Of a stretch of 64,000 bases of DNA, positions 17,922 to 40,458 are shown in pieces. The stretch spans positions 530,940 to 594,939 of the forward strand of contig NZ_VLKC01000002.1 of the NCBI RefSeq assembly GCF_007830295.1. The letters are read 5' to 3'. Positions within the stretch are counted from its first letter, which is position 1; each line of letters starts with the position of its first letter. The notes beneath the pieces were generated by a model. The model worked only from the letters and a program-made list of their open reading frames with translations, was not told the DNA's origin and did not search any database. This DNA comes from Sporomusa sp. KB1. GTDB taxonomy: Bacteria; Bacillota; Negativicutes; Sporomusales; Sporomusaceae. Made by a program: the position numbers and the translations under genes.

Positions 17922-17922
17922 A

Positions 17923-19263: not shown

Positions 19264-19299
19264 TACATTTTCCCTCCTTCTATTCTTTGGGGATTAACG

Positions 19300-19409
19300 T
19301 TATCTTAGTACGCGAGTCAAGACTCCCGCCTCTACAGGCGGCGTTAATTCAGGTGGAGTAGACTCTCCACCTGAATCCCCAGTGTTTCAGCTATGCTGAA
19401 ACGAGTTCA
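19300..19409 (-). repeat. Dispersed hairpin repeat R1, copy 2
   Basis: A near-consensus copy in the same direction as the flanking genes. On the minus strand it starts with the TGA stop of xdhA (TGAACTCGTTTCAGC) and ends ACTAAGATAA. The stems GTTTCAGC/GCTGAAAC, TTCAGGTGGAG/CTCCACCTGAA, CGCCT/AGGCG and GAGTC/GACTC are all intact. Confidence 0.9.
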
Positions 19410-25816: not shown

Positions 25817-25894
25817 TATTATAACCATTCCTTTCAAGCTCAGTGGTAACGGTATGAAACCATTGCCCACTATAGTGGTCGATTATTGAAACTC

Positions 25895-25980
25895 GACGGC
25901 CTAGTAGTGTTGCTCCATCGAAGCATTTAATGTAGCTTATATCCTCGAAGTTTAAAGTTTTAGGCCGTCTATTTACCTGA
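25895..25980 (-). repeat. 3' flank duplicated at 34255-34340
   Basis: This 86-bp stretch around the end of the first UroD-like gene matches 34255-34340 at all but about eight positions. Its ends, GACGGCCTA and TAGGCCGTC, form a perfect nine-base inverted repeat here, so it may also act as a terminator stem. Confidence 0.75.
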
Positions 25981-27075
25981 AGCGGCGGAAATCATGGCCT
26001 TAACATTTTCCACTTTGGCATTGGGAGGGACGGTGCACCCGGAGGATAATATGAACCCTGTACCCATGTCGTTTATCAATTTTGTGCAGTATTTGTATAC
26101 ATCATCGGGAGTGCCCAAGGTAAGCATGCCTGCCGGAACATCTCCTTTGATACACATATGGTTGCCGAGAACCTCTTTTATTTTGTAGATATTGGTAGAG
26201 CTGTCAGTTTCAAAGACGCATTTTCCCCGCGGCAGCATCTTGAAATACTCCAGGTCGCGTTCCCAGTTGCCGTCGATATGAAGATTAGCTATCGCACCCT
26301 CTTCAATAACAGCCTCTACTGTTGCCTTTAGGTATTTCCAAACAAACCGTTCCCACAGTTTGAACGAAAAAAATTGACTGGCGCCCCGGGCAGGGGAGAT
26401 AAAGACGGCCAGCGGTTTGGCCGCCTGAATTTGTTTTCGCAGTGTAGTAATAGTTTCGGCTTGGATTACGTCCAAAACAGCCGCCACTTTGTCCGGCATT
26501 TTGAATAAATCTTTCATAAACTTTGGAAAGGAACGGCCGCCACCCAAAAACTCATTTACCGTGATGGCACCACAAGGGTTATAGAATACATAGCCTGCTG
26601 CTTCGACATTTTTGCCCATTTGTGGAGCGACTTTCATTTCATCCATAATTGCGGCCAGCGGCAGTTCCAATCTTTTCGTAAAGTACTGCTCGCTAAAGGC
26701 GGCCCACCCCTTGGCTAAAATGGTGTCGTAATCTTCCACGGTCATCATTTCTTGTTCGTCCAGTTGCCAGAGGGCATTGTCCGACAGTTCCCGCCCGGGC
26801 AGTTTGACCTTCGAACAAAAGCCTAATGCAAATCCCCGTGCTGCCGTAAAGGCTACGCCGGTACCATCAATATCGCCTAGTTCTTTGTAGGATTTTAAAA
26901 TTATCTCATTGGATCTCTCAAGCGTTGAGATATAGTCAGACAGTTTTACACCCATATGCATAGCGGCAAAAGCATCTCCCGATAGTATTACTGGCGTCTT
27001 ATCCGGCTTCTCCAGCGCTATTGCCTTTTTTATTCTCACAGTACGTTCTTGCAGTAATTGTTCGGGTGTTTTCAT
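25969..27075 (-). CDS. UroD/MtaA-superfamily methyltransferase homologue, type A (copy 1)
   Basis: A 368-residue cytoplasmic TIM-barrel protein of the uroporphyrinogen decarboxylase superfamily, which includes the methylcobamide:CoM methyltransferases MtaA/MtbA and CmuA. Seen: LEKPDKTPVILSGDAF near the start, GGGRSFPKFMKDLFKMPDKV near 185, His266 and Asp268 in NLHIDGNW, and Cys347 in SSGCTVPPNAKVENV. The Asp replaces the second zinc ligand (Cys) of MtaA-type enzymes. HemE is unlikely given six paralogues here. The ATG at 27075 has AGGAGGG seven bases upstream. It is the last gene of an MFS-UroD pair. Substrate unknown; transfer of a methyl group or decarboxylation is inferred from the fold. 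Confidence 0.75.
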   Translation of the reverse strand: MKTPEQLLQERTVRIKKAIALEKPDKTPVILSGDAFAAMHMGVKLSDYISTLERSNEIILKSYKELGDIDGTGVAFTAARGFALGFCSKVKLPGRELSDNALWQLDEQEMMTVEDYDTILAKGWAAFSEQYFTKRLELPLAAIMDEMKVAPQMGKNVEAAGYVFYNPCGAITVNEFLGGGRSFPKFMKDLFKMPDKVAAVLDVIQAETITTLRKQIQAAKPLAVFISPARGASQFFSFKLWERFVWKYLKATVEAVIEEGAIANLHIDGNWERDLEYFKMLPRGKCVFETDSSTNIYKIKEVLGNHMCIKGDVPAGMLTLGTPDDVYKYCTKLINDMGTGFILSSGCTVPPNAKVENVKAMISAASGK

Positions 27076-27126
27076 CAATAAACCCTCCTTATTAATCTTC
27101 GAATTATCGGTCGACATCACCAACGA

Positions 27127-28344
27127 TTAGTTGTCAACAGTGGTTTGAGTTTCACCTTCACGTTTCTGCGCAAAAATTACATATACTAAGGCAATAACAG
27201 CGAAAACGGCCATATTGCCACCGACAAAGGCGAAGCCAGCCCGGATCGAACCATTGGTGATCCAATCAACAAACTGGGTGTAAAAACCGGTGAAGAATTG
27301 GCCAAGGTAAATAGCCATGCTTAACAAAGAAATGGCAAAGGTCTTTTTGGAATTAGGGGCCACTATGGACACCCGGTTCATTAGGTAAGGAAACATTAGG
27401 CCCATGGAAAAACCAAGGAAAATGACCGCAGCCATCATCATGGTATAGGAGTGGGCAATACTAAATAAGAAATAGCATACTGACATGCAGGCTAAACCGA
27501 CAACAGCAGTAAACCGTTTAAGTTTATTCCAGATTTGGGCAAAAAGCATACTAACCACAAATGATCCCAGGGTATTGATTGACGAAGCCATACCGGCGTC
27601 AGCCGAGGTGCCAATGTGTTCATTAACGATGAACAAGGCTAATTTAAAGATAATAAACATAGCAACAGTCATGAACACCAGCATGTCGAAGGAAGTAAGC
27701 CAAACCCGGTAGCCCAGTTTTTCATCCGAGCCAGTTTGCGATTTTGCTTGGATAATGGCCGGGTCCTTTTTTTCCGGGGGGAAATCGGGTAGTAAAAACC
27801 ACTGCATGACTAAAACGATAACAAAGAGCAGGTAGTAATAAAAGGCGTATTTCCAGTCAACTAATGCGGCATAGCCGGCGGCAATACCAAGCACGAACGA
27901 GACAGCGCCGCCGCAGGAGTTGGTCCAGCCCATGAGCTGGGCGCGTTCCTGACCATCATACAGGTAGGCGATCATTGCTGGAGCCAGAGGATAAACAATG
28001 CCGCAGCCAATTCCCAGCAGTGCCCTAGTCCAAACTAAATCCATAATTCCATTGGCGAAAACACCACCGAAGCCACCAATAATGAACAAAAGAGTCCCGA
28101 TCAGCAACAGAGTTTTTTTGCTGATATAGTCAGCTAGTTTGCCGGTTATTAAGATTGCCGGAATCATTAGCAGCGAGGGCAGCGACAGCAACTGATTGAG
28201 CCAGGGACCGGCATCCGGGTAGGAGCCGGCGACATTGGCCAATATTGGCACCATCAGGGCGCTGGCGACCATACCGTTCACACTGCTAAGTAATAGAGTT
28301 AATTTCAGTAAACCACCAGTTCCTAGCCTTTTACTTTCACTCAT
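27127..28344 (-). CDS. MFS transporter 1 of the UroD cluster
   Basis: A 405-residue inner-membrane major facilitator transporter with 12 predicted helices. The first cytoplasmic loop carries GKLADYISKKTLLLIGTLL, the MFS motif A region, and a charged central loop follows helix 6 (FPPEKKDPAII). It is a close paralogue of the protein at 32911 and more distant from that at 38047. Its partner, the type A UroD protein, follows 52 bases later. The ATG at 28344 has GAGGAGAC. A near-consensus sigma-54 promoter lies about 125 bases upstream. It presumably imports the substrate of the neighbouring enzymes or exports a product. Confidence 0.85.
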   Translation of the reverse strand: MSESKRLGTGGLLKLTLLLSSVNGMVASALMVPILANVAGSYPDAGPWLNQLLSLPSLLMIPAILITGKLADYISKKTLLLIGTLLFIIGGFGGVFANGIMDLVWTRALLGIGCGIVYPLAPAMIAYLYDGQERAQLMGWTNSCGGAVSFVLGIAAGYAALVDWKYAFYYYLLFVIVLVMQWFLLPDFPPEKKDPAIIQAKSQTGSDEKLGYRVWLTSFDMLVFMTVAMFIIFKLALFIVNEHIGTSADAGMASSINTLGSFVVSMLFAQIWNKLKRFTAVVGLACMSVCYFLFSIAHSYTMMMAAVIFLGFSMGLMFPYLMNRVSIVAPNSKKTFAISLLSMAIYLGQFFTGFYTQFVDWITNGSIRAGFAFVGGNMAVFAVIALVYVIFAQKREGETQTTVDN

Positions 28345-28470
28345 GAATAAGTCTCCTCTCAGTTTTTAATTTAAAAACAATGTTGCGATGCTATTGGTTT
28401 TCAATTACCGCCGTCAACTGCTATTGCGTGTCTAACAATAAGCGACTGTTTCATCCCAGCCATTTGAACT

Positions 28471-28486
28471 TGCAAAACTCATGCCA
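28471..28486 (-). promoter_or_regulatory. Sigma-54 (RpoN) type -24/-12 promoter before MFS 1
   Basis: On the minus strand the sequence reads TTGGCATGAGTTTTGCA, against the consensus TTGGCACGN4TTGCW. The GG and GC doublets are exactly ten bases apart. Transcription would begin near 28459 and read the MFS-UroD pair. Confidence 0.65.
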
Positions 28487-28610
28487 AAATCAAAAAATGT
28501 ATAATATAAGCTGAGAAGTGAATTAGCTATTCTGCTTTTGAAGGTGATAAATTCCGGCAGCAACAAAAGCATGGCCAGTTGCTCCGGACTAGTAAGGCAG
28601 CCCGGCGGGG

Positions 28611-29735
28611 TTATTCGAGGCAGGCCGCGATAAGCGCATCAATATTTTTGGGCTTAGTGTTATGCGGTAGGGTGCAGGAACCGCTGGTGATAAACCCGGT
28701 AGGACCGAAATCAGCTATCTGCTTTTTGGCTTCTTTGTACACTTTGTCCGGGGTACCGAGGGACATGAGAGCGGGGCTGATATTACCGGTAATGCACATC
28801 CGATCGCCGAGAATTTCTTTGATCTTGTAGATGTCAGTCATACCGTCGCTGTCAAAGATACAGCGGTTTGCCGGAAATTCTTTGAAGTAATCAAGAACTT
28901 TTGTCCAGTTTGCATCCATGTGGAAATACGGCGTTCCGCCAATCTCCAAAACAGCATTGGTTTCTGCCTGAAACAGGGGCCAGATGTATTTTTCAAATTT
29001 ATCGCGGGAAATAAAATCGCAATTACCGCGTACTGCGGGGGCAATACCTACCCGGATGCTCTCCCCAGGGCAACGTTTCTGTAGTACCGCCAGATCACGC
29101 CGGAAGTCGGCCATCATTTCTTCAGTAATGACATCAAGCGTTGCTTTCACTTTGTCCGGTATTTTCCACAAATCGCGGATGAAATTAACGATACCGCGCC
29201 CGGCGCATAGACCATCGTAAATAATCGGACCCATCATCTGAGTCATGTTGATACAGCCGATATCCTGCAGTTTTTGGTCTGTATAGGCCATGTATTTTCC
29301 GCTCAATAAAAGGTCTTCTTCGGTCAGACCAAGATAATGTTCAAAATAATATTTCTGGTAATACTTCCAGCCTTTGCTGATAATTACGTCGTAGTCTCCC
29401 ACTTTCATGCAGGCGACTTCTTCGATCTGCCAGGATGCCGTCGGCGCTAGTTCATGACCGGGCAGTTTGGCCTTTGACATCCAGACAGCGCCTAGCGCTT
29501 TGCCGGGAGTAATCCCCAAAACGCTTACAGCATCAATGTGCTTCATTTGTTTTAAGGCATCGAGAGCGCGGTCAAGTGCCCAGGGAAATTGGTCCACATA
29601 ATCAGCGGGAATCGCCGAACGTTCCGCATAATGGAAGAAAGCAAAGTCGCCGGAAAGGCAAATTGGGGTACGATCGGTTTTTTCTCTGCGAACCGCCTTT
29701 TCAATCCGTTCTTTTCCTTGATTGATTTCACTCAT
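28611..29735 (-). CDS. UroD/MtaA-superfamily methyltransferase homologue, type B (copy 1)
   Basis: A 374-residue UroD-superfamily protein, clearly related to but distinct from the type A copies. It has REKTDRTPICLSGDFAFFHY at the start, LCAGRGIVNFIRDLWKIPDK near residue 180, His272 and Asp274 in FHMDANW, and Cys354 in SGSCTLPHNTKPKNI. Type B proteins share a CDFISRDKFEKYIWPLF-like segment where type A has RGASQFFS and KLWERFVWKY. The His-X-Asp...Cys arrangement recurs. It starts at the ATG at 29735 after GGAGGTG. It follows the type A copy 2 gene after 74 bases on the same strand. It may act as the partner subunit or on a related substrate. Confidence 0.72.
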   Translation of the reverse strand: MSEINQGKERIEKAVRREKTDRTPICLSGDFAFFHYAERSAIPADYVDQFPWALDRALDALKQMKHIDAVSVLGITPGKALGAVWMSKAKLPGHELAPTASWQIEEVACMKVGDYDVIISKGWKYYQKYYFEHYLGLTEEDLLLSGKYMAYTDQKLQDIGCINMTQMMGPIIYDGLCAGRGIVNFIRDLWKIPDKVKATLDVITEEMMADFRRDLAVLQKRCPGESIRVGIAPAVRGNCDFISRDKFEKYIWPLFQAETNAVLEIGGTPYFHMDANWTKVLDYFKEFPANRCIFDSDGMTDIYKIKEILGDRMCITGNISPALMSLGTPDKVYKEAKKQIADFGPTGFITSGSCTLPHNTKPKNIDALIAACLE

Positions 29736-29809
29736 GATTTACACCTCCATCCTGTTTTTGTTGGAACGGTGGCAAAAGGAGCCGATTTTGAGCTGATGAG
29801 CTTGCCGGT

Positions 29810-30916
29810 CTACTTACCGGAAGCGGCTGCAACCATGGCTTTGACATTATCTACTTTGGCATTTGGCGGTATGGTGCAACCGGAAGCAAGAATAAAACCT
29901 GTTCCCATATCATGAATCAGTTTGGTGCAATAATCATACACTTCATCAGGAGTGCCAAGCGTCAGTAAGGCAGCCGGAACATCACCTTTGATACACATAT
30001 GGTCACCCAGAACCTCTCGCACTTTGTAGATGTTAGTAGAACTGTCTGACTCGAAGATACATTTCTGTTTAGGCAAGGTTTTAAAATATGCCAGATCGCG
30101 TTCCCAATTGCCGTCAATATGGAGATTGGCTATGGCACCTTCCTCAACAATCATTTCAACAGTGGCTTTCAGGTATTTCCAGACAAAACGTCTCCATATT
30201 TTAGGAGAATAGAACTCGCTGGCACCTCGGGCCGGCGAAAGGAAAACAAGTAAGGGTTTGGCAGCCCGAATTTGTTTCCGAAACTCGGCCAATGTTTCTT
30301 GAAGAATTAGATCTAAAACAGCCTCTACCTTATCAGGCATCTTAAACATATCTTTCATGAACTTGGGAAATGACCGTCCGCCGCCCAAATATTCATTAAC
30401 CGTGATTGTCGCGGTGGTAGCGAATACCAGATAACCGGCATTTTCAAAGTTTTTTATAAATTGCGGTATATTGTCCAGTTGCGGCAGCAAGCTATCGACA
30501 TCAAATCCTAGTCGATTCTTGATATAATCATCACTAAAATTTTTCCAACCAGTATTCAAAATGGTATCGTAATCTTCCACAGTCATCAGTTCTTGTTCAT
30601 CAAGCTGCCACATGGCATCATCGGGAAGCTCCCGCCCAGGTAATTTGACTTTGCAATAAAACGCTAAAGGAAAACCAGTCGCTCCTCCAAAAATATTGCC
30701 GGCTCCATCTACATCTCCAAAGTCTTTGAATGAATGTAAAATTGCTTCATGAGAAGCCTTAAAATCCGCACAAAAATCTGATAATTTCATGCCTGCATAT
30801 TTTGCAAAAAAAGCATCACCACTAAGTGTGACCGGTGTCCTGTCAGTTTTCTCAAAGGCAATAGTTTTCTTTACCCGTTCGGTGCGTTCTCCCAATAATT
30901 GTTGCGCGTTTTTCAT
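29810..30916 (-). CDS. UroD/MtaA-superfamily methyltransferase homologue, type A (copy 2)
   Basis: A 368-residue close paralogue of the proteins at 25969 and 34329, with the same length and the same landmarks: FEKTDRTPVTLSGDAFF, GGGRSFPKFMKDMFKMPDKV, RGASEFYSPKIWRRFVWKYL, His266 and Asp268 in NLHIDGNW, and Cys347 in ASGCTIPPNAK. The ATG at 30916 is chosen because it aligns with the starts of the other type A genes; the ribosome site is weak (GAGTGG) and a longer in-frame version reaches 30973. It stands directly downstream of the porin gene and upstream of the type B copy 1, suggesting co-expression with outer-membrane uptake. Confidence 0.72.
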   Translation of the reverse strand: MKNAQQLLGERTERVKKTIAFEKTDRTPVTLSGDAFFAKYAGMKLSDFCADFKASHEAILHSFKDFGDVDGAGNIFGGATGFPLAFYCKVKLPGRELPDDAMWQLDEQELMTVEDYDTILNTGWKNFSDDYIKNRLGFDVDSLLPQLDNIPQFIKNFENAGYLVFATTATITVNEYLGGGRSFPKFMKDMFKMPDKVEAVLDLILQETLAEFRKQIRAAKPLLVFLSPARGASEFYSPKIWRRFVWKYLKATVEMIVEEGAIANLHIDGNWERDLAYFKTLPKQKCIFESDSSTNIYKVREVLGDHMCIKGDVPAALLTLGTPDEVYDYCTKLIHDMGTGFILASGCTIPPNAKVDNVKAMVAAASGK

Positions 30917-31121
30917 AATTAACCACTCGCTTTCTTTAGTTTCCCGTTCATTCCGGCTACAACTCAAGAACAATCAGATGAATTGGCCTTGAATTCACTT
31001 TAGCCGCACCTAAAAGTCCCAATGCTTTCTTCCGCATTGACTACCAGACCATTTCAAAAAGGGCTATTACCACAAAGGCTTCGTCTTTGTGCCCCCCATA
31101 TTGGGGTTTTCACTGACGTAT

Positions 31122-31164
31122 AAATTATTCAGACCTCTCTATATAGAGGGGGTCTAAATAATTT
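31122..31164 (-). terminator. Terminator of the SLH porin gene
   Basis: A long AT-rich stem (AAATTATT and AGACC on one side, GGTCT and AATAATTT on the other) caps a CTCTATATAGAG tip, 20 bases after the porin stop. A second small hairpin (CACAAAG/CTTTGTG) follows near 31070-31090. Confidence 0.75.
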
Positions 31165-31183
31165 AGTCTGTATAAAGACCAGA

Positions 31184-32617
31184 TTAATAGAAGAAGTCTA
31201 ACTTAACTTGATACAGGCTGCCAGCGGCATTGGTGTAGCCAGGCAACAGACTGAGATCTTTATACTTGACATGCCAGTAGGCTAACTGCAGGTTGGTATT
31301 TTTAGCGATAACTTTCTGGTACAGCAAAAACAGCGTTTTGGTATTGTCCTGCTGTTCGTAGCTGGGGCTGCCCACATAGTTTTTATTCCACTGAAAATCC
31401 CAGCCATTAACGTATGGGGGTACAGCGCCAGCATCACATTCAAAATAGCCAACAGCCCATGCGCTTTGGCCGACGGTTTTGTGGTCAACAATGTCGGAAG
31501 CCGGCCAAGTGGTATGAGGAATCGTGACTTGTCCATTGGTTAAAAAGAGAGCAAACGCTTTAGGGTTTTTCGGTATCATGGTGTAACCGGCCAGCGCGGT
31601 ACGGTCCACAAGCGTAGTGTTGATATATTCGGCCAATAAGGTCAGGTTACCGATCTTGTAATCCGCTGAAAGGTCAAGCCCCTGGGATTTTTGGAACGAA
31701 GTGCCAAGGAAGTTGCCGTTAGTATAGGCAATGGTGTCGCTGGTACTGCCGTTAATGCTGGACCAATAGTAGCCGGCCCGCAAGCCGAAATTGTCGGACA
31801 GTCTGGTGCCTAATTGAAAGTCCCCCATTACCGGGTTAGTCTGTGGCGGGCTGGTCTGATAAGCCGGTGAGTTTACATTGGCGATATAGGTAGTAGCTTC
31901 AACGTTGCCGAGGGTTTTCTTAAAGAAAATGCCATCGGCATTAGACGGACGGGCGATTAGACCTATACCGATATCATGGACAGGCTGACGGCCTGCCCAG
32001 ATCATGTCAAGGCCCATGGTATCGAACATCATAGCACTGGCGCCGGTCATTTTTACTGCGGCAGTGGTATTGCCGATATGTTGGTCGCCGCCCATTTCCA
32101 GAGTGAGGTTTACAAAGGTTTTGTCATTAACTTTGTAGGTAAAGAAGTTTTTGTCGGCAAAGGTAAACTTTTGGCTGCCGTTAAGCCGTTTAGTACCGGC
32201 GGCTTCATTGCCGGACGGAATGCTGTCGTAATGGAAGCCCAGTTGTAGGTCACCAGTAATAGTTAATTTATCTTGTTTTTCTTTGATCGCCTTAACTTCA
32301 GCGCCGAGGGTCTTAAGTTCGCCGGCGAATTCAGCGGCTAGTTTGTTGATTAACGCTTTGTCTTCGTCATTGGCCTTGTCAACTTTTTTTAGGGCATTGA
32401 CTACGACTAGAGCCATTTCATAACGTGTAATAGTATTATTGCCACGGAAAGTTTTATCGCTGTAACCATCAACAATTCCGTCGTTCGCCAATTTATTTAC
32501 GGCGCTATATGCCCAGTGATTGGTCGGAACATCGCCGAACGGGTTTTCAGCGGCAAAGGCTACCGATGCAAAGCTAAATAGAAAGAGTACTAAAATCAGA
32601 TACGTTAGTTTTTTCAT
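31184..32617 (-). CDS. SLH-domain outer-membrane porin (OmpM type)
   Basis: A 477-residue secreted protein. A signal peptide occupies residues 1-22 and ends AFA. One S-layer-homology domain follows (FGDVPTNHWAYSAVNKLAND, then GYSDKTFRGNNTITRYEMA), which in Negativicutes tethers the outer membrane to modified peptidoglycan. A coiled-coil linker (about 70-115, AEVKAIKEKQDKL) precedes a beta-barrel of alternating strands ending in an aromatic C-terminus (KLDFFY). The family forms general or substrate-induced pores. Its place inside the UroD/MFS locus suggests it is the dedicated outer-membrane entry route. The ATG follows AAAGGTGGGG. Confidence 0.88.
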   Translation of the reverse strand: MKKLTYLILVLFLFSFASVAFAAENPFGDVPTNHWAYSAVNKLANDGIVDGYSDKTFRGNNTITRYEMALVVVNALKKVDKANDEDKALINKLAAEFAGELKTLGAEVKAIKEKQDKLTITGDLQLGFHYDSIPSGNEAAGTKRLNGSQKFTFADKNFFTYKVNDKTFVNLTLEMGGDQHIGNTTAAVKMTGASAMMFDTMGLDMIWAGRQPVHDIGIGLIARPSNADGIFFKKTLGNVEATTYIANVNSPAYQTSPPQTNPVMGDFQLGTRLSDNFGLRAGYYWSSINGSTSDTIAYTNGNFLGTSFQKSQGLDLSADYKIGNLTLLAEYINTTLVDRTALAGYTMIPKNPKAFALFLTNGQVTIPHTTWPASDIVDHKTVGQSAWAVGYFECDAGAVPPYVNGWDFQWNKNYVGSPSYEQQDNTKTLFLLYQKVIAKNTNLQLAYWHVKYKDLSLLPGYTNAAGSLYQVKLDFFY

Positions 32618-32658
32618 TTTTACCCCACCTTTAATTTTTTATTACCGGGACCTTTCGT

Positions 32659-32709
32659 CTACCACCGATAGCCATTGTTTGAGGCCGTTAAGTACTTTTG
32701 ATTATTCAC
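32659..32709 (-). CDS. Possible 16-codon leader ORF before the porin
   Basis: A short frame starts with GTG at 32709 and ends at TAG 32659, encoding MNNQKYLTASNNGYRW. A GAG directly before the GTG is the only ribosome-site-like sequence and is too close to be ideal. It lies 42 bases before the porin start. Support is weak. Confidence 0.25.
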   Translation of the reverse strand: MNNQKYLTASNNGYRW

Positions 32710-32718
32710 CTCACTTGC

Positions 32719-32787
32719 TTACTGCGTATTAATTGCAATTTGAGCAGCCAAATAGTACTTTACCAGAGTTCCGTTACCGGCTGCCAA
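32719..32787 (-). CDS. Possible 22-codon small ORF in the porin leader
   Basis: A TTG at 32787 stands seven bases after a strong GGGGGTGA and opens a 22-codon frame ending at 32719; its product contains LVKYYLAAQIAINTQ. The frame is hydrophobic-amphipathic in composition. It could be a leader peptide or a small membrane-active protein; it could also be chance. Confidence 0.35.
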   Translation of the reverse strand: MAAGNGTLVKYYLAAQIAINTQ

Positions 32788-32910
32788 AAGCAAATCACCC
32801 CCTTATTTAAAGCTGTTTTTATCCAAATTATCGCTCGCCTGGCTTGCTGCAAATAAACTGCTTGCACTAGGGATAAATAATCTGTCTGGATGCTTCATGC
32901 AACGTGCATG

Positions 32911-34122
32911 CTATTTCTCTACCATGCTTATGTTGCGGTCCCGACTCTGTGTAGCAAAGATATATATTATGGCAATAATTACGCAGATAGCAAGCATCGC
33001 CGCTACAAAGGTGAAGGTTCCGCGAATTGATCCATGCGAGACCCAGTCGGCAAATTGCGTAAAAAATGCTGAGAGGTACTGTCCTATGTAAATGGACATA
33101 CTCAAAAAAGAAATAGCGAACGTTTTTTTAGAATTAGGAGCCACGGTGGAAACACGGTTCATTAGGTAGGGGAACATTATACCCAGCGATAAACCGAGAC
33201 AGATTGCCGCGACTACAACCAGTGAAAAGCTGTGGGCAATACTGAAGAAAAAATAACCTAAGGCCATGCAAGCAAGGCCAAGCACTGCGGTGAACCGTTT
33301 TAGCCCCTTCAATACTTGGACGAAAACCAGGCTAATTAAGAATGAGACCACAGTCTGGATCGAGGTGGCAAGCCCGACATCCACTGATGTGCCAATGTGT
33401 CCGCTAACGATAAATAAGGATAGTTTGTAAAGAAGAACCATTGACATGGTCATGTATACAATCATGTCAATGGAGGTCAGCCAGACCCGATAGCCTAACT
33501 TTTCATGCGGGTTGCCTTGGACTTTAGTCTGAGCTATCTTGTCATCCTTCTTCTCCGGCGGGAAATTCGGCAATGTAGCCCACTGCATAATTAGCACGAG
33601 AACAAAAATCAGGTAAAAATAGAAGGCGTATTTCCAGTTAAATAGTGCGGCATACCCCGCACCGATAGCCAAGGCAAACGAGAATACACTTCCGCAGGCA
33701 TTGGTCCAGCCTAGTAGCTGTGCGCGCTCCTGGCCCTGGTATAAATAGGCGATCATTGCCGGAGCCATCGGATACACCATACCTGCGCCGATTCCCAGCA
33801 GAGCCCGGGTCCAGACTAAATCCATAATATTGTTAGCAAAGACGCCGCCAAAGCCGCCAGCGATAAACAGAATCGTTCCAATCATGAGCAATGTTTTTTT
33901 GCTGACATAGTCCGCCAGTTTACCAGTTATTATTATTGTTGGAATCATCAATAGACTGGGTAACGACAGTAGCTGATTCAGCCAGGGGCCGGCGTCAGGG
34001 AAGGCGTCAGCGATATTTGCCAAAATTGGTACCAGCAAGACGCTGGCGACCATACCGTCGACACTGCTGAATAGCAAGGCGCCTTTAAGCAGATTTCCCC
34101 TTGCTCCACCACTATTAACCAC
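32911..34122 (-). CDS. MFS transporter 2 of the UroD cluster
   Basis: A 403-residue, 12-helix MFS transporter, a close paralogue of the one at 27127 along its whole length (both share VLVPILANIADAFPDAGPWL-like helix 1-2 sequence and the central FPPEKKDD loop). Start choice: GAGGAG lies eight bases before GTG 34122, while the longer TTG-started frame at 34140 contains that ribosome site. Located between the porin and the type A copy 3 gene. The duplicated MFS-UroD arrangement and 3' flank suggest block duplication. Confidence 0.85.
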   Translation of the reverse strand: MVNSGGARGNLLKGALLFSSVDGMVASVLLVPILANIADAFPDAGPWLNQLLSLPSLLMIPTIIITGKLADYVSKKTLLMIGTILFIAGGFGGVFANNIMDLVWTRALLGIGAGMVYPMAPAMIAYLYQGQERAQLLGWTNACGSVFSFALAIGAGYAALFNWKYAFYFYLIFVLVLIMQWATLPNFPPEKKDDKIAQTKVQGNPHEKLGYRVWLTSIDMIVYMTMSMVLLYKLSLFIVSGHIGTSVDVGLATSIQTVVSFLISLVFVQVLKGLKRFTAVLGLACMALGYFFFSIAHSFSLVVVAAICLGLSLGIMFPYLMNRVSTVAPNSKKTFAISFLSMSIYIGQYLSAFFTQFADWVSHGSIRGTFTFVAAMLAICVIIAIIYIFATQSRDRNISMVEK

Positions 34123-34254
34123 GAGACATTCTCCTCTCAAATTCTGCTGTCTAACTTGAAATAACTACAAAATAGTTGTACCGCGTATATTTCACTATAG
34201 TGGTCAATATCTTTGCCTTTATGGTTATGGGAAATATACAAAGGTTTCCGTGCT

Positions 34255-34340
34255 GACGGCCTAGTAACGTTGATCCATCGAAGCATTTAATGCAGCTTAT
34301 ACCCTCGAAGTTTAAAGTTTTGGACCGCCTATTTACCTGA
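34255..34340 (-). repeat. 3' flank duplicated from 25895-25980
   Basis: It matches the 3' end and downstream region of the first UroD-like gene with about eight differences. The inverted-repeat right arm has decayed here (TGGACCGCC), so the potential stem is weaker than at 25895. The upstream motif actatagtggtc is also shared. Confidence 0.75.
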
Positions 34341-35435
34341 AACAGCGGAAATCATGGCTTTGACATTTTCCACCTTGGCATTTGGCGGTACATAACAACC
34401 GGACGACAGAATTAAGCCTGGGCCCATATCACGTATCAGCTTTGTGCAGTAATTATAGACCTCATCCGGCGTTCTCATCGTCAGCATAGCCGCTGGCACA
34501 TCACCTTTGATACACATGTGGTCGCCGAGCATTTCCTTAATCTTGTAAATGTCAGTCACCGAGTCAGTATCAAAAATGCATTTACCCCGTGGCAGTGTTT
34601 TAAAATATTCCAAATCGCGTTCCCAGTTGCCATCAATATGGATATTAACTGCCGATCCTTCTTCAATAATTACGTCCGCCAACCCCTTAAGGTATCGCCA
34701 GACAAACCGCTCCCACAGTTTCCGCGAAAAGAACTGGCTGGCACCGCGGGCGGGAGTCAGACAAGTCACCTTCGGTTTGACGGCTCGCAGTTGCTTTCTA
34801 AGCTCCTCTACTGTTTCTTGATGGATGATATCCAGGACAGCTTGAACCTTGTCCGGCATACGAAATAAATCGCGCGTAAACCGGGGAAATGATCGGCCTC
34901 CACCCAGGTGTTCATTTACCGTGATAGCGAAGCAAGGCGTATAAACCATATAACCATTATCCTCAACATCTTTGGTCATTTGCGGCACACCGCCTAAATC
35001 CGCTACTATCTCGGAAACTGAAATATGCAATCTGTTGGCAAAATAATCGTCCTTAAAGGCTGACCAGCCTTTATTTAAAATGATATCGTAGTCTTCTGTC
35101 GTCATTCTTTCCTGTTCGTCAATCTGCCATAAAGCATCATCCGATAGTTCCCGTCCAGGCAGTTTAACATTGGCAAAAAATGCAAGTGGAAATGAATTTG
35201 CGGCGGTAAATACCGCGCTTATTCCATCAATATCTCCCAGTTGCTTAACTGAATTCATAATTATTTCATGAGATCTTTCCGGACTGGAGCAATATTCTGA
35301 TAATTTGACGCCCATATGCATTGCGCAAAATGCGTCGGCTGAGAATACCACTGGCGTCCTGTCCGCCTTTTCCAGCGCAATGGCCTTTAACACGCGTGCG
35401 GTACGCTCTTTAAGTAACTCTTGAACTGTTTTCAT
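34329..35435 (-). CDS. UroD/MtaA-superfamily methyltransferase homologue, type A (copy 3)
   Basis: A 368-residue type A paralogue with LEKADRTPVVFSADAF, GGGRSFPRFTRDLFRMPDKV, RGASQFFSRKLWERFVWRYL, His266 and Asp268 in NIHIDGNW, and Cys347 in SSGCYVPPNAK. The ATG at 35435 follows AGGTGGTG by six bases. The gene shares not only coding sequence but also its 3' flank with the copy at 25969, so the two separated by a fairly recent duplication. MFS 2 follows downstream and type B copy 2 precedes it. Function inferred as for the other copies. Confidence 0.72.
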   Translation of the reverse strand: MKTVQELLKERTARVLKAIALEKADRTPVVFSADAFCAMHMGVKLSEYCSSPERSHEIIMNSVKQLGDIDGISAVFTAANSFPLAFFANVKLPGRELSDDALWQIDEQERMTTEDYDIILNKGWSAFKDDYFANRLHISVSEIVADLGGVPQMTKDVEDNGYMVYTPCFAITVNEHLGGGRSFPRFTRDLFRMPDKVQAVLDIIHQETVEELRKQLRAVKPKVTCLTPARGASQFFSRKLWERFVWRYLKGLADVIIEEGSAVNIHIDGNWERDLEYFKTLPRGKCIFDTDSVTDIYKIKEMLGDHMCIKGDVPAAMLTMRTPDEVYNYCTKLIRDMGPGLILSSGCYVPPNAKVENVKAMISAVSGK

Positions 35436-35556
35436 AGTAAACACCACCTATTGATTTTTAAACTCAAACCCCTTACCCATCCTCGTGCTTAAGTCCAACA
35501 CCTCTTAGCTTTTTCCCACTGCTTCGGACAAGAAGATTCTTTATCTTCGGTCTGAG

Positions 35557-36675
35557 TTAGCCTTTTGCAGCAGCAACTAATGCTTCGACATTTTCTGGTT
35601 TTGCATTGCAAGGTACGGTACAGCCTGAGGAAAGAATGATGCCTGACGGACCAATTTCTTCGATTAATTTGCGGGAATACTTATAAACATCATCCGGAGT
35701 TCCCAGCGTGAGCATCGCCGGCGATACGTCCCCGGTAATACACATCCGGTCGCCAAGTACTTCTTTTATCTTGTAGATATTGGTCGAACTGTCAGGATCA
35801 AATATACAACTACCTTTAGGAAAATCAGTAAAATAATCAAGGAAATCATCCCAACGGGCATCCATATGAAATAATACTTTGACGCCTTCAGCGATAGCTA
35901 CGTCGGTAAATTTTTTGAACAATGGCCAGCCAAATTTTTCAAACATCTTTCGTGATAAGAAGTCACAATTGGCCCGGACGCAAGGAACTACGACTGTGCA
36001 AAACGGTTTTTTCACCCGTAGAAATTTTATCTCGTCCTCAACCATTTCAGCCACCATAACATCTAATACGGCTTTGATTTTGTCAGGCTTTTTATACAAA
36101 TCGCGGTTAAACTTGACAAGTCCGCGACCTGAACAAAGAGCATCATACGGTATTCCGCCGCCAATACCGTCAAGAAGGTTAACCAGGCCGATTGATTTGA
36201 ACTTTTCATCCTGCTGTTTATTGAATTCCGGGTCTGGCGTTATCTGTTCGGAAGTATAGCCCAATCTTGTAGTCAAAAAGTCCGGTAAAAACTTACGCCA
36301 GCCAATTTTCAAAATGGTATCGTAATCTTCTTCGGTCATCAATCCGACTTCATCGATTTGCCAAAAAGTATCATCCGACAGTTCGCGGCCGGGAATCTTG
36401 GTTTTAGACAACCACATCGCCCCGGTTGCATCCGCTCTACCCAACACTGGCGGTCCGCCGGCGTCAACCTCGGCCAGTTTCTGATAGCCGTTAATTACCA
36501 TATCATCAGCCCAATCCGGCCGGTTTATGAAATCAACCATTTTTGCCTGCGGGTTGCCATATTTCAAAAAGAAGGTTCCCGAAAGCAATATTGGCGTTCG
36601 GTCGGGTTTCTCTAAGGCAATAGCCTTTTTTAGCCTTGCCATTCGTTCATTGAATAAAGTTTCTGTCGAGTTCAC
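35557..36675 (-). CDS. UroD/MtaA-superfamily methyltransferase homologue, type B (copy 2)
   Basis: A 372-residue type B protein: LEKPDRTPILLSGTFFLKYG, LCSGRGLVKFNRDLYKKPDK, CDFLSRKMFEKFGWPLF, His270 and Asp272 in LFHMDARW, and Cys352 in SSGCTVPCNAKPENV. The GTG at 36675, eight bases after GAGG, aligns with the starts of the paralogues; an upstream GTG at 36684 overlaps that site. It sits between the type C and type A copy 3 genes, all on the minus strand with gaps of about 120-150 bases. Confidence 0.72.
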   Translation of the reverse strand: MNSTETLFNERMARLKKAIALEKPDRTPILLSGTFFLKYGNPQAKMVDFINRPDWADDMVINGYQKLAEVDAGGPPVLGRADATGAMWLSKTKIPGRELSDDTFWQIDEVGLMTEEDYDTILKIGWRKFLPDFLTTRLGYTSEQITPDPEFNKQQDEKFKSIGLVNLLDGIGGGIPYDALCSGRGLVKFNRDLYKKPDKIKAVLDVMVAEMVEDEIKFLRVKKPFCTVVVPCVRANCDFLSRKMFEKFGWPLFKKFTDVAIAEGVKVLFHMDARWDDFLDYFTDFPKGSCIFDPDSSTNIYKIKEVLGDRMCITGDVSPAMLTLGTPDDVYKYSRKLIEEIGPSGIILSSGCTVPCNAKPENVEALVAAAKG

Positions 36676-36724
36676 ATCGCACACCTCGTTTTCTTCTTTC
36701 TTCCATCATCAGGCTTAAATATTA

Positions 36725-36770
36725 CTCCCGTTAACCCCTCCCGCACTTTCGGGGTAGGGTGCAACGGGAG
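36725..36770 (-). terminator. Intercistronic hairpin between type C and type B genes
   Basis: CTCCCGTT and AACGGGAG form a perfect outer stem with an inner GC-rich CCCCT/GGGG pairing. No T-run follows, so it may be an RNA-processing or attenuation structure more than a full terminator. Confidence 0.45.
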
Positions 36771-36825
36771 CAGCATATCGCCTTTTATTTACTTAAGCGT
36801 TTTTTGTTTATACATAGGAACAAAT

Positions 36826-37938
36826 TTATTTGCCGGAAGCGGCGGCGACCATGGCTTTGACATTTTCCTCCTTGGCGTTAAAAGGTACAAAGCAAGCTTC
36901 AGCCAAGATGTATCCTGTCGGGCCAATTTCGTTGACCAGCCTACGGCTGTAGTTATATACTTCGTCCGGCGTTCCCAGCGTTAAGAGCGCCGGCGGTACA
37001 TCGCCCATTATGCAGGCATGGCCTTCTAACGCTTCTTTGAGTTTATAGATATCGGTTGAATTGTCACTGTGGAAAATAAATTTCTTGGCCGGCAGCTCGC
37101 GGAAGACCTCTAAATCCCGATTCCAATCGCCATCCATATGTAAGTAGGCAATTGAACCATTATCTGCGATAAACTCGACTGCCTGTTTCATATACGGCCA
37201 GACAAAGCGCTGCCAGAGTTTTGGCGAGAATAAGCCTGTTGCGCTGCGCGGGGCACCCATCATCACCGTTAACGGGTTAGCGGCAAAACAAGGCTTAGCC
37301 ATGGCCAGCAGGTCCGGCATAGCGGCATCCATGGCCGCTTGTACTTTGTCCGGGCACTTAAATAAATCTTTCATAAAGTTACTCATGCCCCGGCCGCAGC
37401 TAAACAAATCAAGGGGCATCATGATTGCGCCGCCGGACAGCGGCACAACGCCGGCGTTGCTAAAATTGGTGTCGTATTGGGGCATATTGGCTTTGCTTAC
37501 TGTTTCTAAATCAGCCAGTGTCTCGGGAATTCTGGTTTCGAGAAAATGTTTATTGAACGCGTTCCAGCCTTTGTCGATGATCATATCGTAATCCTCGACT
37601 GTCATCAGATCCACTTCTTCAACTTGCCAGATATCGTTTTCCCCTAATTCCCGTCCAGGCAGCTTTTGCCGGGAAAGGAACGCCGGTCCACTGGCAATGG
37701 CCAAGGCCGTTGTTTGCATCGAGCAATCGGCATTTTCCCCCATGTCCAGCATGCAGTTAAGCATCATTTCGCTTGCTCTGTCCATATCACTTAAGTATTC
37801 GGCTAAGGTAAATCCCATATGTCTTGCAGCAAAGGAGTCAACCCCCAGCACTACCGGCGGACGGTCAGTTTTTTCCAATGCAATTGTCTTTTTAATCCGG
37901 TCAGTACGTTCCTGAAACAGCTCCAGGCCAGTTTTCAT
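36826..37938 (-). CDS. UroD/MtaA-superfamily methyltransferase homologue, type C
   Basis: A 370-residue UroD-superfamily protein forming a third subgroup. It keeps LEKTDRPPVVLGVDSFAARH, FSCGRGMSNFMKDLFKCPDK, SATGLFSPKLWQRFVWPYMK, His267 and Asp269 in LHMDGDW, and Cys349 in AEACFVPFNAKEENV. The C-terminus (AAASGK) is identical to the type A copies. The ATG at 37938 has AAAGGTGG ten bases upstream and aligns with MKTGLELFQERT-like starts elsewhere in the locus. It is immediately downstream of MFS 3, suggesting that pair is a unit. Confidence 0.72.
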   Translation of the reverse strand: MKTGLELFQERTDRIKKTIALEKTDRPPVVLGVDSFAARHMGFTLAEYLSDMDRASEMMLNCMLDMGENADCSMQTTALAIASGPAFLSRQKLPGRELGENDIWQVEEVDLMTVEDYDMIIDKGWNAFNKHFLETRIPETLADLETVSKANMPQYDTNFSNAGVVPLSGGAIMMPLDLFSCGRGMSNFMKDLFKCPDKVQAAMDAAMPDLLAMAKPCFAANPLTVMMGAPRSATGLFSPKLWQRFVWPYMKQAVEFIADNGSIAYLHMDGDWNRDLEVFRELPAKKFIFHSDNSTDIYKLKEALEGHACIMGDVPPALLTLGTPDEVYNYSRRLVNEIGPTGYILAEACFVPFNAKEENVKAMVAAASGK

Positions 37939-38046
37939 AGTATAATATCCACCTTTCATTTAGTCATTTTGAGGAGTTTTTATCTGTCACGTAATATATA
38001 CAGAACTACTAACCGTCATTTTATAAAATCTAACGGTGACCATTTT

Positions 38047-39246
38047 TTAAGCATTCAAGTTCTTGCTACTATTTAAATGTTTATCAAATTGACTTTGCGT
38101 TGATAATATGAAGACAACGGAAATAACGACAATAATCAAGACCTGGACAGCAATTATCGAAAATGCCGCTCTTGTTACTCCATTGACAAAAGATTCAACC
38201 GCTTGGATATAATACGCCGCTAGAAATTGCCCGATGTACATCGCTGTACTCACGAACGACACTGCGGTAGTCTGCGCGTTTTTAGGAACAACCATGGTTA
38301 TTGTTGTCATCATGTATGGCAACACAGTTGCTAATGAAACTCCCATAAAAAGCGAGGCAACAATAATCATTTCAAAATTCTGCGCGATACTAAGGCAAAA
38401 GAAACATAATCCGGTTGCAGCAAAGCCCACCACTGCCGTATACCTCTTCAAGGCTTTAAATACTTGTCCAAACACTAAGCAAAGAAGCAATGCTGTAAAC
38501 GATACTACTGAAGAAGCTATTCCGGCATTCGCCGAATTTCCAAGGTTTGCTTCCATGATAAAAATAGCAGTTTTTACAATGAACACCATGCTGATTACCA
38601 TATATACCAATGTCGCCAAAACATAAACCCAAGCCAGCCAGTTCAAACCGTCATTTTTGTCATCCTTTGTCATTGCGACGTCTTGTTTTTCCGGGGGTAC
38701 ATGGGGTAATATCATTATTTGGGCAATCAACAAAACTATATATAATAAATAAATATAAAAAGCATAATGCCAGTCCATTACCGCAAGGTAGCCGGTAACT
38801 GTGGCAAAAACTACTCCGAAAATGCTTCCGGTCGCATTTCCCCAGCCAATCATCTTAGGTACTTCCTGGCCTTGATAAAGTTGCGCAATTAACGCTGGAA
38901 CCAATGGAAAAATCAACCCTGTACCCAGTCCGCCAATAGTCCGCATTAGTAAAATGAAGTCAATATTATCATACAGGCCACCACCAAACCCGCCAATAAT
39001 ATAAAGAATAGAACCAAAAACCAGAACGGTTTTCTTACTGACATATTTGCTAATATATCCGGATAATAGTATTGCAGGAATCATAACCAATGACGGCAAG
39101 GAAATAAGCATAGGAATCTTCGTTCCCGCATTTGGAAATTCTATTGCTAAATTCCCCATGATCGGCATAATTAAAGTTGTCGCCATCATTGTATAGGTGT
39201 AGCTAAACAATAACACTGCCTTCAAAGCCGAACCTGTATTTTGCAT
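38047..39246 (-). CDS. MFS transporter 3 of the UroD cluster
   Basis: A 399-residue, 12-helix MFS protein. It shares the plan of the other two (GYISKYVSKKTVLVFGSILY in loop 2-3, HVPPEKQDVAM in the central loop) but is clearly more diverged. The ATG at 39246 is preferred over a GTG four codons earlier that overlaps GGGAGAG. It is the first minus-strand gene of the locus and is divergent from the LysR regulator, the usual layout for LysR-controlled genes. Confidence 0.85.
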   Translation of the reverse strand: MQNTGSALKAVLLFSYTYTMMATTLIMPIMGNLAIEFPNAGTKIPMLISLPSLVMIPAILLSGYISKYVSKKTVLVFGSILYIIGGFGGGLYDNIDFILLMRTIGGLGTGLIFPLVPALIAQLYQGQEVPKMIGWGNATGSIFGVVFATVTGYLAVMDWHYAFYIYLLYIVLLIAQIMILPHVPPEKQDVAMTKDDKNDGLNWLAWVYVLATLVYMVISMVFIVKTAIFIMEANLGNSANAGIASSVVSFTALLLCLVFGQVFKALKRYTAVVGFAATGLCFFCLSIAQNFEMIIVASLFMGVSLATVLPYMMTTITMVVPKNAQTTAVSFVSTAMYIGQFLAAYYIQAVESFVNGVTRAAFSIIAVQVLIIVVISVVFILSTQSQFDKHLNSSKNLNA

Positions 39247-39570
39247 GTTATAACACACTCTCCCTTATTTTTTTGATCAATGTACAATACTGACAACTTC
39301 TTATTCACCTCCCAGCAGTATGTGGCTTTACTAAAATTACATGTTTATGATACTTAAAAATAAAACAATTGTGAAATATCAAAATAGACATGTATATTCC
39401 AAAAATTCATAACATACGTAATGATTTTTTATAAATTTTGAAATATAATGATGGATATAACATTATATAAATTTGTCAACAAAGCACATCTGCCGTTTGA
39501 TACACGCTTTGGTAGTTTCGCCTTCAATAAGCTGATAACATTAAATCATATTTTTCAGAGGTGACAATCC
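39247..39570. promoter_or_regulatory. Divergent control region between MFS 3 and the LysR gene
   Basis: A 324-bp AT-rich spacer without a supported gene. It must hold the promoters of both divergent genes. On the minus strand TTGACA (39474-39479) precedes TATCCA by 16 bases, a weak pair. On the plus strand a TATAAT lies at 39444-39449 with a poor -35 (ATGATT). Several T-N11-A dyads fit a LysR box, but none stands out. Confidence 0.45.
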
Positions 39571-40458
39571 ATGAATAATGATATTCGTTATTTACATTCA
39601 TTCATTGCTGTAGCTGAGTATTTAAATTTTACCAAAGCAGCCGAACATCTCCATATTAGTCAATCGGCACTAAGTAAACATATTATTGAATTAGAAGAAC
39701 AATTAGGAGTCCAATTATTTATTCGCAACCACTCAATGGTTTGTCTGACGCGTGCGGGGTTTACCCTATTTAAAGAGGCTGGAAATCTTCTGAAGAAAAT
39801 TGATGAAGTGCTTGAAGCAACACGTCAATCCCAAAATGATGTTTCAGGAAAGCTAAAAATTGGATGCCCTAGCTCTTCGCACACTTTTCTGCCCAAAATC
39901 TTCAAACGGTTTAGTGCTCTTTATCCCCACATCACCCTTGAACTGCGAGTGCTCCAGATGCCAATTAGCAATAACCAACTGTATCTAGAAGAATTAGACA
40001 TTAATTTCAATTCCTGTATCGGGCATACGGAGAAACTAAAGTCTCCATTTAAGCAAAAAGAAATACGAAGATCCCGACTATGTTTCTTATTGCCCATCAA
40101 TCACACTTACGCTAATAAATATTCCATTAGTCTTTACGAACTTAAACAAGAGCGCTTCATTCTCTTTGATCAACCGGGATTTGAATTTAGCAATTGGTTT
40201 GTACGTAAGTGTAACGAACAAGGATTTACCCCTAATATTGCACATGCTTTTTCGGAAGTAGATAGCATTTTTTTGCATGTGGCATCTGGGCTGGGAATTT
40301 CATTTTTTGTTTTGGATTCACTATATTGTAAAATGCTGCGAAGTCAAATTTCCGTTGTTGCTATGAATGGCGATGATGCATATGGCATAGTTTCTGCTGT
40401 TTGGAATACTAAAAATAAAAACCCCGCTATTTCACTTTTTTTAAATTCAATTAATTGA
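39571..40458 (+). CDS. LysR-family transcriptional regulator
   Basis: A 295-residue LTTR. The N-terminal winged helix-turn-helix covers residues 1-60 (FTKAAEHLHISQSALSKHII, then QLGVQLFIRN). The rest is a periplasmic-binding-protein-like effector domain of two lobes (from about residue 92). GAGGTGAC precedes the ATG. It is divergent from MFS 3, and LTTRs usually regulate the divergent unit with a pathway metabolite as co-inducer, so it is the likely regulator of at least the MFS 3-type C pair. The gene is more AT-rich than the UroD genes. Confidence 0.88.
   Translation: MNNDIRYLHSFIAVAEYLNFTKAAEHLHISQSALSKHIIELEEQLGVQLFIRNHSMVCLTRAGFTLFKEAGNLLKKIDEVLEATRQSQNDVSGKLKIGCPSSSHTFLPKIFKRFSALYPHITLELRVLQMPISNNQLYLEELDINFNSCIGHTEKLKSPFKQKEIRRSRLCFLLPINHTYANKYSISLYELKQERFILFDQPGFEFSNWFVRKCNEQGFTPNIAHAFSEVDSIFLHVASGLGISFFVLDSLYCKMLRSQISVVAMNGDDAYGIVSAVWNTKNKNPAISLFLNSIN

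What the first reader, a model, noticed from the sequence alone, without database searches (positions are those of the whole stretch)
25969..40458. Candidate undescribed system: six UroD-superfamily enzymes, three MFS transporters and one SLH porin under a LysR regulator
Seen: six full-length UroD/MtaA-like proteins in three subgroups (A at 25969, 29810, 34329; B at 28611, 35557; C at 36826) interleaved with three MFS paralogues and an outer-membrane SLH porin, all on one strand with a divergent LysR gene. Known: the superfamily includes HemE and corrinoid-dependent methyltransferases (MtaA, MtbA, CmuA). Inference: the porin, transporters and enzymes form one uptake-and-processing route for a family of small (perhaps methylated) compounds. 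Unusual points are the copy number, the built-in outer-membrane pore and the absence of any corrinoid protein nearby.
Basis: partly seen in the sequence, partly recalled or inferred. Interest (0 to 1): 0.8.

Follow-up and report, generated by a model that had tools for sequence, protein, structure and literature searches.

The report
Six-enzyme methyl-group harvesting array
A Sporomusa-type bacterium carries six related enzyme genes beside three transporter genes, one outer-membrane pore gene and a sensor gene; together they likely import methyl ethers, perhaps plant-derived, and would strip off their methyl groups, handing them to one shared vitamin-B12 protein that is predicted to be encoded elsewhere in the genome.

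Summary
In detail: six full-length UroD-superfamily genes in three subgroups, three MFS genes and one SLH porin lie on one strand beside a divergent LysR gene; a small chemosensor gene (24989-25870) follows. The enzymes are neither HemE nor MtaA/Mlp type: their MtbA-like zinc site reads His-Asp-Cys, not His-Cys-Cys, a pattern described for O- rather than S-methyl enzymes. Outside the genus, 44 of 77 such genes have a corrinoid protein within three genes, and acetogenic Clostridium keeps several with methyltransferase II and activase. The 'missing' corrinoid protein is most likely the one on contig C2 (623634-624278), in an activase-CobW-corrinoid protein-MTII operon: of 18 own corrinoid proteins in the tree it alone groups with those abutting such enzymes, and it co-occurs with them (17 of 18 genomes). 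In S. malonica the orthologous operon is followed by chemosensor, enzyme, porin, enzyme and LysR genes, which our genome lacks there. Best reading: the window is the largest of ten modules (16 enzymes) feeding one shared demethylation core. Substrates, metal and co-regulation are untested. New variant of a known kind (O-demethylase-like methyltransferase I systems).

The parts
24989..25870 (-). small chemotaxis-type sensor (MCP signalling domain, 293 aa), last gene of the array
   Evidence: PF00015 1e-28; the same family lies beside UroD genes in L033, L049, L052, L134. The MCP family is large in this genome: 55 matches, itself included, of which four (itself included) align over nearly the whole length
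25969..27123 (-). UroD-superfamily enzyme A1, predicted methyltransferase I; likely start at an internal ATG, 368 aa
   Evidence: PF01208 1.2e-26; H282-x-D284...C363 at codons 26278-26280, 26272-26274, 26035-26037
27127..28344 (-). MFS transporter 1
   Evidence: PF07690 8.9e-35; 66% to MFS2
28611..29735 (-). UroD-superfamily enzyme B1, predicted methyltransferase I, the most divergent of the six
   Evidence: PF01208 7.5e-21; H272-x-D274...C354
29810..30973 (-). UroD-superfamily enzyme A2, predicted methyltransferase I; likely internal start, 368 aa
   Evidence: PF01208 8.7e-30; H285-x-D287...C366; AlphaFold2 model, mean pLDDT 93.2
31184..32617 (-). SLH-anchored outer-membrane porin, OmpM-like
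   Evidence: SLH PF00395 7e-13; 8bys E 1.1e-29 and 8bym 1.1e-28, named there only 'S-layer homology domain-containing protein'; that these are Veillonella OmpM porins is recalled
32911..34140 (-). MFS transporter 2
   Evidence: PF07690 3.8e-35; 87% and 86% orthologues in Sporomusa sp. and S. aerivorans
34329..35447 (-). UroD-superfamily enzyme A3, predicted methyltransferase I; likely internal start, 368 aa
   Evidence: PF01208 1.7e-28; H270-x-D272...C351
35557..36684 (-). UroD-superfamily enzyme B2, predicted methyltransferase I
   Evidence: PF01208 1.6e-24; H273-x-D275...C355; 93% orthologue in Sporomusa sp.
36826..37959 (-). UroD-superfamily enzyme C1, predicted methyltransferase I
   Evidence: PF01208 7.2e-30; H274-x-D276...C356
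38047..39258 (-). MFS transporter 3
   Evidence: PF07690 8.6e-35; 39% to MFS1
39571..40458 (+). divergent LysR-type regulator, predicted to control the array
   Evidence: PF00126 1.7e-21, PF03466 9.5e-26; 53-56% relatives beside the same kind of module in L040 and L054

Best explanation
This is a cluster of six UroD-fold enzyme genes, three MFS transporter genes, one SLH porin gene, one chemosensor gene and a divergent LysR gene, and the six enzymes are likely substrate-specific methyltransferases I (O-demethylases) that would pass methyl groups to one shared corrinoid protein predicted to be the one encoded on another contig. Shown: the genes, the conserved His-Asp-Cys triad in all six, the recurrence of similar modules in the genus, the corrinoid-protein neighbourhood of many relatives elsewhere, and a matching core operon (MTII, corrinoid protein, CobW, small protein, activase) on contig C2 of the same genome. 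Inferred: the porin and MFS proteins would bring methyl ethers into the cell; a metal held by His-Asp-Cys would activate the ether oxygen; Co(I) of the corrinoid protein would take the methyl group; MTII would pass it to tetrahydrofolate and the Wood-Ljungdahl pathway (acetyl-CoA synthase genes are present). The six enzymes would differ in the substrate they accept, the shared core would do the rest, and the LysR protein would switch the array on. Methoxylated aromatics are the likeliest substrates; that part is the least certain.
For: Active site: in 150 distinct UroD rows from the loci, the position of the first zinc Cys of MtbA is D in 130 and C in 18 (E and N once each), with H in 149 and C in 148 at the other two; all six window proteins are HDC. 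A preprint states that His-Cys-Cys marks S-methyltransferases and that in O-methyltransferases of this superfamily one or both Cys are replaced by carboxylates or by non-ligands (PMC10418091, passages). Neighbours: 14 of 23 Clostridium and 30 of 54 other non-genus H-x-D genes have a corrinoid protein within three genes (rows not independent); L061, L064 and L066-L070 carry MTII, CobW, corrinoid protein, UroD and RACo activase in varying completeness. In L138 (a genome of the same class) porin, enzyme, corrinoid protein and MFS lie in a row on one strand. Hub: C2:620.4-625.2 kb is activase, small protein, CobW, corrinoid protein, MTII; its corrinoid protein sits in a 35-row clade (97), 26 of whose 32 non-genus members lie within two genes of an H-x-D enzyme, and it is the only one of 18 own corrinoid proteins in that clade. 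Co-occurrence over 41 genomes: both 17, enzyme only 1 (58% complete), corrinoid protein only 1, neither 22; Fisher 2e-9, not corrected for kinship. Acetyl-CoA synthase family in three copies. Closest solved sequence relative: the corrinoid methyltransferase CdmB.
Confidence: 0.66

Rival explanations
1. The six enzymes are corrinoid methyltransferases I but act on substrates other than methyl ethers, for example halomethanes or other methylated compounds, as CdmB does with chloromethane.
For: CdmB is the closest solved relative (E 4.4e-28 with the profile), and the CdmB paper places haloalkane users in scattered uncharacterised UroD clades. MFS2 has three 51-54% relatives named 'Dehalobacter sp. 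DCM'.
Against: The window family keeps H-D-C, CdmB does not; a porin plus three MFS genes would be of little use for a small gas (inference); CdmB groups with the long own-genome protein of L035 rather than with the window proteins (flagged there as two long branches meeting).
Confidence: 0.17
2. They use the second, GntR-linked corrinoid protein (C2:648333-648989, beside DUF1638) or several corrinoid proteins rather than one hub.
For: GntR-corrinoid protein-DUF1638 lies near an A3-like enzyme in L039, L055, L057 and is the only own corrinoid protein within 5 kb of an enzyme locus counted. In L105 and L079 a member of that clade lies within two genes of an H-x-D enzyme.
Against: In the corrinoid-protein tree that clade is separate; in L079, L100 and L141 it is the extra copy, while the copy next to the enzyme belongs to the hub clade.
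Confidence: 0.25
3. The enzymes are not methyltransferases: they are decarboxylases or lyases of the UroD fold on imported aromatic acids.
For: The predicted fold matches HemE as well as MtbA; no corrinoid protein in the window.
Against: NCBIfam hemE scores 22-37 bits against a cut-off of 303; the relatives' corrinoid-protein, MTII and activase neighbours; the conserved triad.
Confidence: 0.07
4. The cluster is a pile-up of duplicated genes without a common role.
For: A1 and A3 are sisters; MFS1/MFS2 and hence the full array are missing from the eight held genus-mates.
Against: Three old subgroups 37-47% identical, all with intact triads; porin, MFS, LysR and sensor associations recur in other loci; orthologues at 86-93% are kept in other Sporomusa.
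Confidence: 0.06

Closest known systems
Mto O-demethylation operon of Methermicoccus shengliensis (PMC8630106, passages seen)
   Same: UroD-family methyltransferases I (MtoB1, MtoB2), corrinoid protein, MTII, activase, MFS transporter and regulator around one pathway
   Different: there one operon holds everything; here six enzymes plus a porin and a chemosensor stand apart from corrinoid protein, MTII and activase
Cdm chloromethane system of Acetobacterium dehalogenans (PMC13222342, passages and Discussion read)
   Same: UroD-fold methyltransferase I; closest solved relative by sequence
   Different: CdmB lacks the His-Asp-Cys triad and needs no zinc; cdmBCA is one cluster; no porin or MFS array is mentioned in what I read
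Type 1 mlp gene clusters (PMC10418091, outline and passages seen)
   Same: UroD-superfamily corrinoid methyltransferases in acetogens and others; 12 H-x-C...C relatives occur in this genome
   Different: mlp enzymes carry His-Cys-Cys and are proposed S- or Se-methyltransferases; the window proteins fall outside the H-x-C clade (100 support, FastTree)
O-demethylases OdmB, VdmB, MtvB of acetogens (as cited in PMC13222342)
   Same: substrate-specific methyltransferase I feeding a corrinoid protein
   Different: sequence relation not tested here

Membership tests
UroD superfamily | PF01208 match over cut-off and UroD TIM-barrel fold | tested here: met
HemE uroporphyrinogen decarboxylase | NCBIfam hemE equivalog cut-off | tested here: not met
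   22-37 bits against 302.95
MtaA/MtbA/Mlp methyltransferases | family cut-off and His-x-Cys...Cys zinc site | tested here: not met
   PRK06252 58-81 bits against 244; H-x-D...C in all six
Corrinoid O-demethylase systems (methyltransferase I component) | zinc site with a Cys replaced by a carboxylate | tested here: met
   Asp at the first Cys position in all six; rule taken from PMC10418091. Residues only; metal binding not tested
Corrinoid O-demethylase systems (methyltransferase I component) | corrinoid protein, MTII and activase in the same gene cluster | tested here: not met
   none in the window; present beside many relatives and as an operon on contig C2. So it is not filed as a complete O-demethylase system
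Corrinoid O-demethylase systems (methyltransferase I component) | phylogenetic grouping with OdmB, VdmB, MtvB, MtoB | not tested
   no sequence of these was at hand
Corrinoid O-demethylase systems (methyltransferase I component) | methyl transfer from a methyl ether to Co(I) | not testable with these tools
   needs purified proteins
CdmB haloalkane methyltransferases | same residues at the active-site positions | tested here: not met
   at the positions aligned with H, D and C of A1 CdmB has S, Q and F (alignment)
OmpM-type SLH porins | SLH domain plus similarity to solved SLH-bearing outer-membrane proteins | tested here: met
   SLH over cut-off; 8bys E 1.1e-29 over residues 16-221, 8bym 1.1e-28; the rest of the barrel was not modelled, and the name OmpM is recalled

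The most novel reading that the evidence does not exclude
A hub-and-spoke methyl-harvesting network: one corrinoid protein with one methyltransferase II and one activase serves sixteen different His-Asp-Cys UroD enzymes spread over ten genomic loci, which draw in varying combinations on a 'sense, import, cleave' kit (chemosensor, SLH porin, MFS, enzyme, LysR), with the six-enzyme window array as the fullest set. The His-Asp-Cys enzymes would be an uncharacterised clade of methyl-ether demethylases whose specificity diversifies while the B12 core stays single-copy.
Probability: 0.4. Interest if true: 0.68.

Novelty: new variant of a known kind. Interest (0 to 1): 0.52.

Why it matters
Acetogens can carry dozens of UroD-superfamily genes of unknown substrate (32 in this genome). 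The array gives six of them a predicted reaction, a predicted uptake route and a named predicted partner, so the substrate range of anaerobic demethylation becomes testable with one corrinoid protein and interchangeable enzymes. The CdmB authors point to uncharacterised UroD clades whose function is open. A single core shared by many enzymes would also show how a methyl diet widens without new B12 machinery.

Tried and rejected
HemE role: rejected by hemE scores. S-methyl (mlp) role: rejected by the triad and the tree. Fold as judge between decarboxylase and methyltransferase: HemE and MtbA tie; CdmB (9rui) appears in neither list, which says nothing about the fold, and that library ends in April 2026. 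Promoter and terminator scan: 45 promoter-like sites against 34.3 (sd 5.3) in shuffles and 29 terminator-like against 18.0 (sd 4.6); it does not settle the transcript structure. MFS type and direction of transport: not decided. A second possible core at C1:3.55 Mb (L149) turned out to be an MTTB-type methyltransferase with its own corrinoid protein and MTII, and its corrinoid protein falls outside the hub clade.

Porin background: six own porin-family matches align over nearly the full length, the window's own included; of the five others, two lie within 5 kb of an enzyme locus, one of these beside the non-H-x-D enzyme of L035. The binomial values counted the window's own porin and L035 as hits and are therefore too favourable. 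The other three sit in loci without these enzymes, so this porin type is probably a general substrate-linked pore. Porin 'family' in my counts means a BLAST cluster; the L138 member has no Pfam match, and porins of other taxa would escape it. In one search no porin lies within three genes of the 23 Clostridium, 54 other and 4 CTSoil-MAG genes; beyond that set, L138 and L140 (same class and same order) do have one.

Papers: searches listed no paper that I recognised as describing this array; only open-licence PMC papers are held.

Rows dropped: UroD proteins under 330 or over 480 aa, and 12 near-identical ones, were left out of the 150-row alignment (162 to 150); two own UroD-like proteins (289 and 324 aa) are therefore not in the motif count. 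Of 578 and 388 homologues the best 120 each were listed; 26 of the 120 went into the 41-row alignment for folding. The corrinoid-protein tree held 16 of the 19 own matches; one search added two, and the last is a 790-aa methionine-synthase-like frame left out.
Full report
What is there. On the minus strand, in the order of transcription, the window holds MFS3 (39258-38047), enzyme C1 (37959-36826), B2, A3, MFS2, the SLH porin, A2, B1, MFS1, A1 and a small chemosensor gene (25870-24989), with a LysR gene diverging at 39571. The six enzymes are full length and match PF01208; none passes the curated cut-off of any NCBIfam family it hits. Alignment and tree confirm three subgroups.

The genome around it. 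There are 32 distinct PF01208 genes. Sixteen carry His-x-Asp...Cys (six here, ten in nine other loci), twelve His-x-Cys...Cys, and two deviate (L035, L042); two shorter ones were not classed. Of the ten outside the window, six have an MFS, four a porin, seven a LysR and two a chemosensor gene within three genes; none has a corrinoid protein. Some of these loci are only an enzyme plus a LysR gene (L031, L037). The window is the largest of the ten.

The active site. The zinc site of MtbA-type enzymes is His-x-Cys...Cys (PMC10418091, and recalled). In the profile alignment with 4ay7 the window family puts His on His, Asp on the first Cys and Cys on the second. Over 150 distinct UroD rows the counts are H 149, D 130 or C 18, and C 148. 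The H-x-C rows separate from the rest with support 100 in a FastTree tree. The preprint says that His-Cys-Cys marks S-methyltransferases and that replacement of Cys by carboxylates or non-ligands is seen in O-methyltransferases. This points to an oxygen-bound methyl group. Metal binding itself is not shown, and CdmB works without zinc.

Neighbours elsewhere. One scan of 84,980 species genomes gave 75 loci. In Clostridium 14 of 23 and in other taxa 30 of 54 H-x-D genes have a corrinoid protein within three genes; in four CTSoil MAG loci 1 of 4; in the named Sporomusa loci 1 of 16; in the window 0 of 6. Many of the 54 come from one Eubacteriales MAG, so the rows are not independent. C. ragsdalei, C. 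drakei and C. carboxidivorans show MTII (Pterin_bind), DUF1638, CobW, a small His-containing protein, DUF2284, corrinoid protein and the enzyme, with RACo activase near by; C. magnum, C. luticellarii, BL-3 and C. ljungdahlii show parts of it. Porin neighbours: 10 of 16 in the named Sporomusa loci, 0 of 23 in Clostridium, 0 of 54 in other taxa, 0 of 4 CTSoil. Absence in single-membrane Clostridium fits an outer-membrane uptake role. In the same-class genome G038 (L138) porin, enzyme (76% to A2), corrinoid protein and MFS are consecutive on one strand, which ties all four kinds together in one place.

The missing corrinoid protein. Contig C2, 620.4-625.2 kb, holds activase, small protein, CobW, corrinoid protein and MTII. 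In a tree of 72 corrinoid proteins this one falls in a clade of 35 rows (97); 26 of its 32 non-genus rows lie within two genes of an H-x-D enzyme. With 18 of the 19 own matches included, it is the only own corrinoid protein in that clade; no other own one exceeds 42% identity to it. Against exclusivity, corrinoid proteins of other clades also abut H-x-D enzymes in L105, L112, L114, L115 and L119. Among 41 genomes, 18 have a strong match to A2 (best E at or below 1e-40) and 18 a close relative of this corrinoid protein (best E at or below 1e-70); 17 have both. The exceptions are one 58%-complete genome with the enzyme only and one genome with the corrinoid protein only (Fisher 2e-9; kinship not corrected, thresholds set after seeing the lists). 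In 15 of the 18 genomes it has one copy at 60% identity or more. In G013, G020 and G023, each with one enzyme match, the enzyme abuts the corrinoid protein by coordinates. The same class of module and the same core are thus physically joined in a sister species.

How it would work. Shown: genes, triad, associations, core operon, acetyl-CoA synthase genes. Inferred: porin and MFS import of methyl ethers, or export of the product by one MFS; metal-assisted cleavage by one of six enzymes; methyl transfer to Co(I) of the C2 protein; MTII to tetrahydrofolate; Wood-Ljungdahl pathway. In related systems methyltransferase I defines substrate specificity (PMC12915777, passage), which is why six diverged enzymes on one core make sense.

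Conservation of the array. None of the relatives' regions read holds all ten genes, and MFS1/MFS2 relatives above 35% are absent from all eight held genus-mates. A Sporomusa sp. has 93% A1, 93% B2 and 87% MFS2 orthologues, each listed with the same longest-contig length of 22,900, which suggests one contig; S. aerivorans has 90% A3, 89% MFS1 and 86% MFS2.

Known or new. UroD-type methyltransferases I with corrinoid protein, MTII, activase and MFS genes are known (Mto, Cdm). What is unusual is the separation of a many-enzyme, transport-rich substrate side from a single-copy core. I rate it a new variant of a known kind.

Noticed in passing
L039:12607-14723, L049:6037-8166, also L057, L079, L100 (GntR, corrinoid protein, DUF1638): A GntR/UTRA regulator, a second type of corrinoid protein and a DUF1638 protein recur as a triplet near these enzymes; the corrinoid protein forms its own clade and might sense methylation state.
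   Followed up: partly
L061:8601-9086, L064:7097-7582, L070:19212-19697: A small protein, His-rich in several Clostridium copies, beside CobW and the corrinoid protein; perhaps metal delivery. No Pfam match for the copies tested in L064 and L144.
   Followed up: partly
window 16570-22941: MobA-like, YqeC, xanthine/uracil-type permease and molybdopterin hydroxylase subunit genes on the same strand, downstream of the array; probably a separate purine or heterocycle route.
   Followed up: partly
G000:C1 2.13, 2.56, 2.88-2.89, 4.95 Mb (L043, L044, L045, L048): Several loci with H-x-C...C enzymes, corrinoid proteins and, in most, activases (mlp-like) in the same genome.
   Followed up: partly
L149:2771-7639 (G000:C1 3.55 Mb): An MTTB-family methyltransferase, a corrinoid protein and MTII near each other: a separate methylamine- or betaine-type system.
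   Followed up: partly
P0219, P0224, P0229: Three MFS2-like transporters (51-54%) named Dehalobacter sp. DCM, with one shared longest-contig length.
   Followed up: no
L130:6988-7843: Two short overlapping porin-family ORFs behind a C1-like enzyme in another Sporomusa genome, looking like one interrupted porin gene.
   Followed up: no
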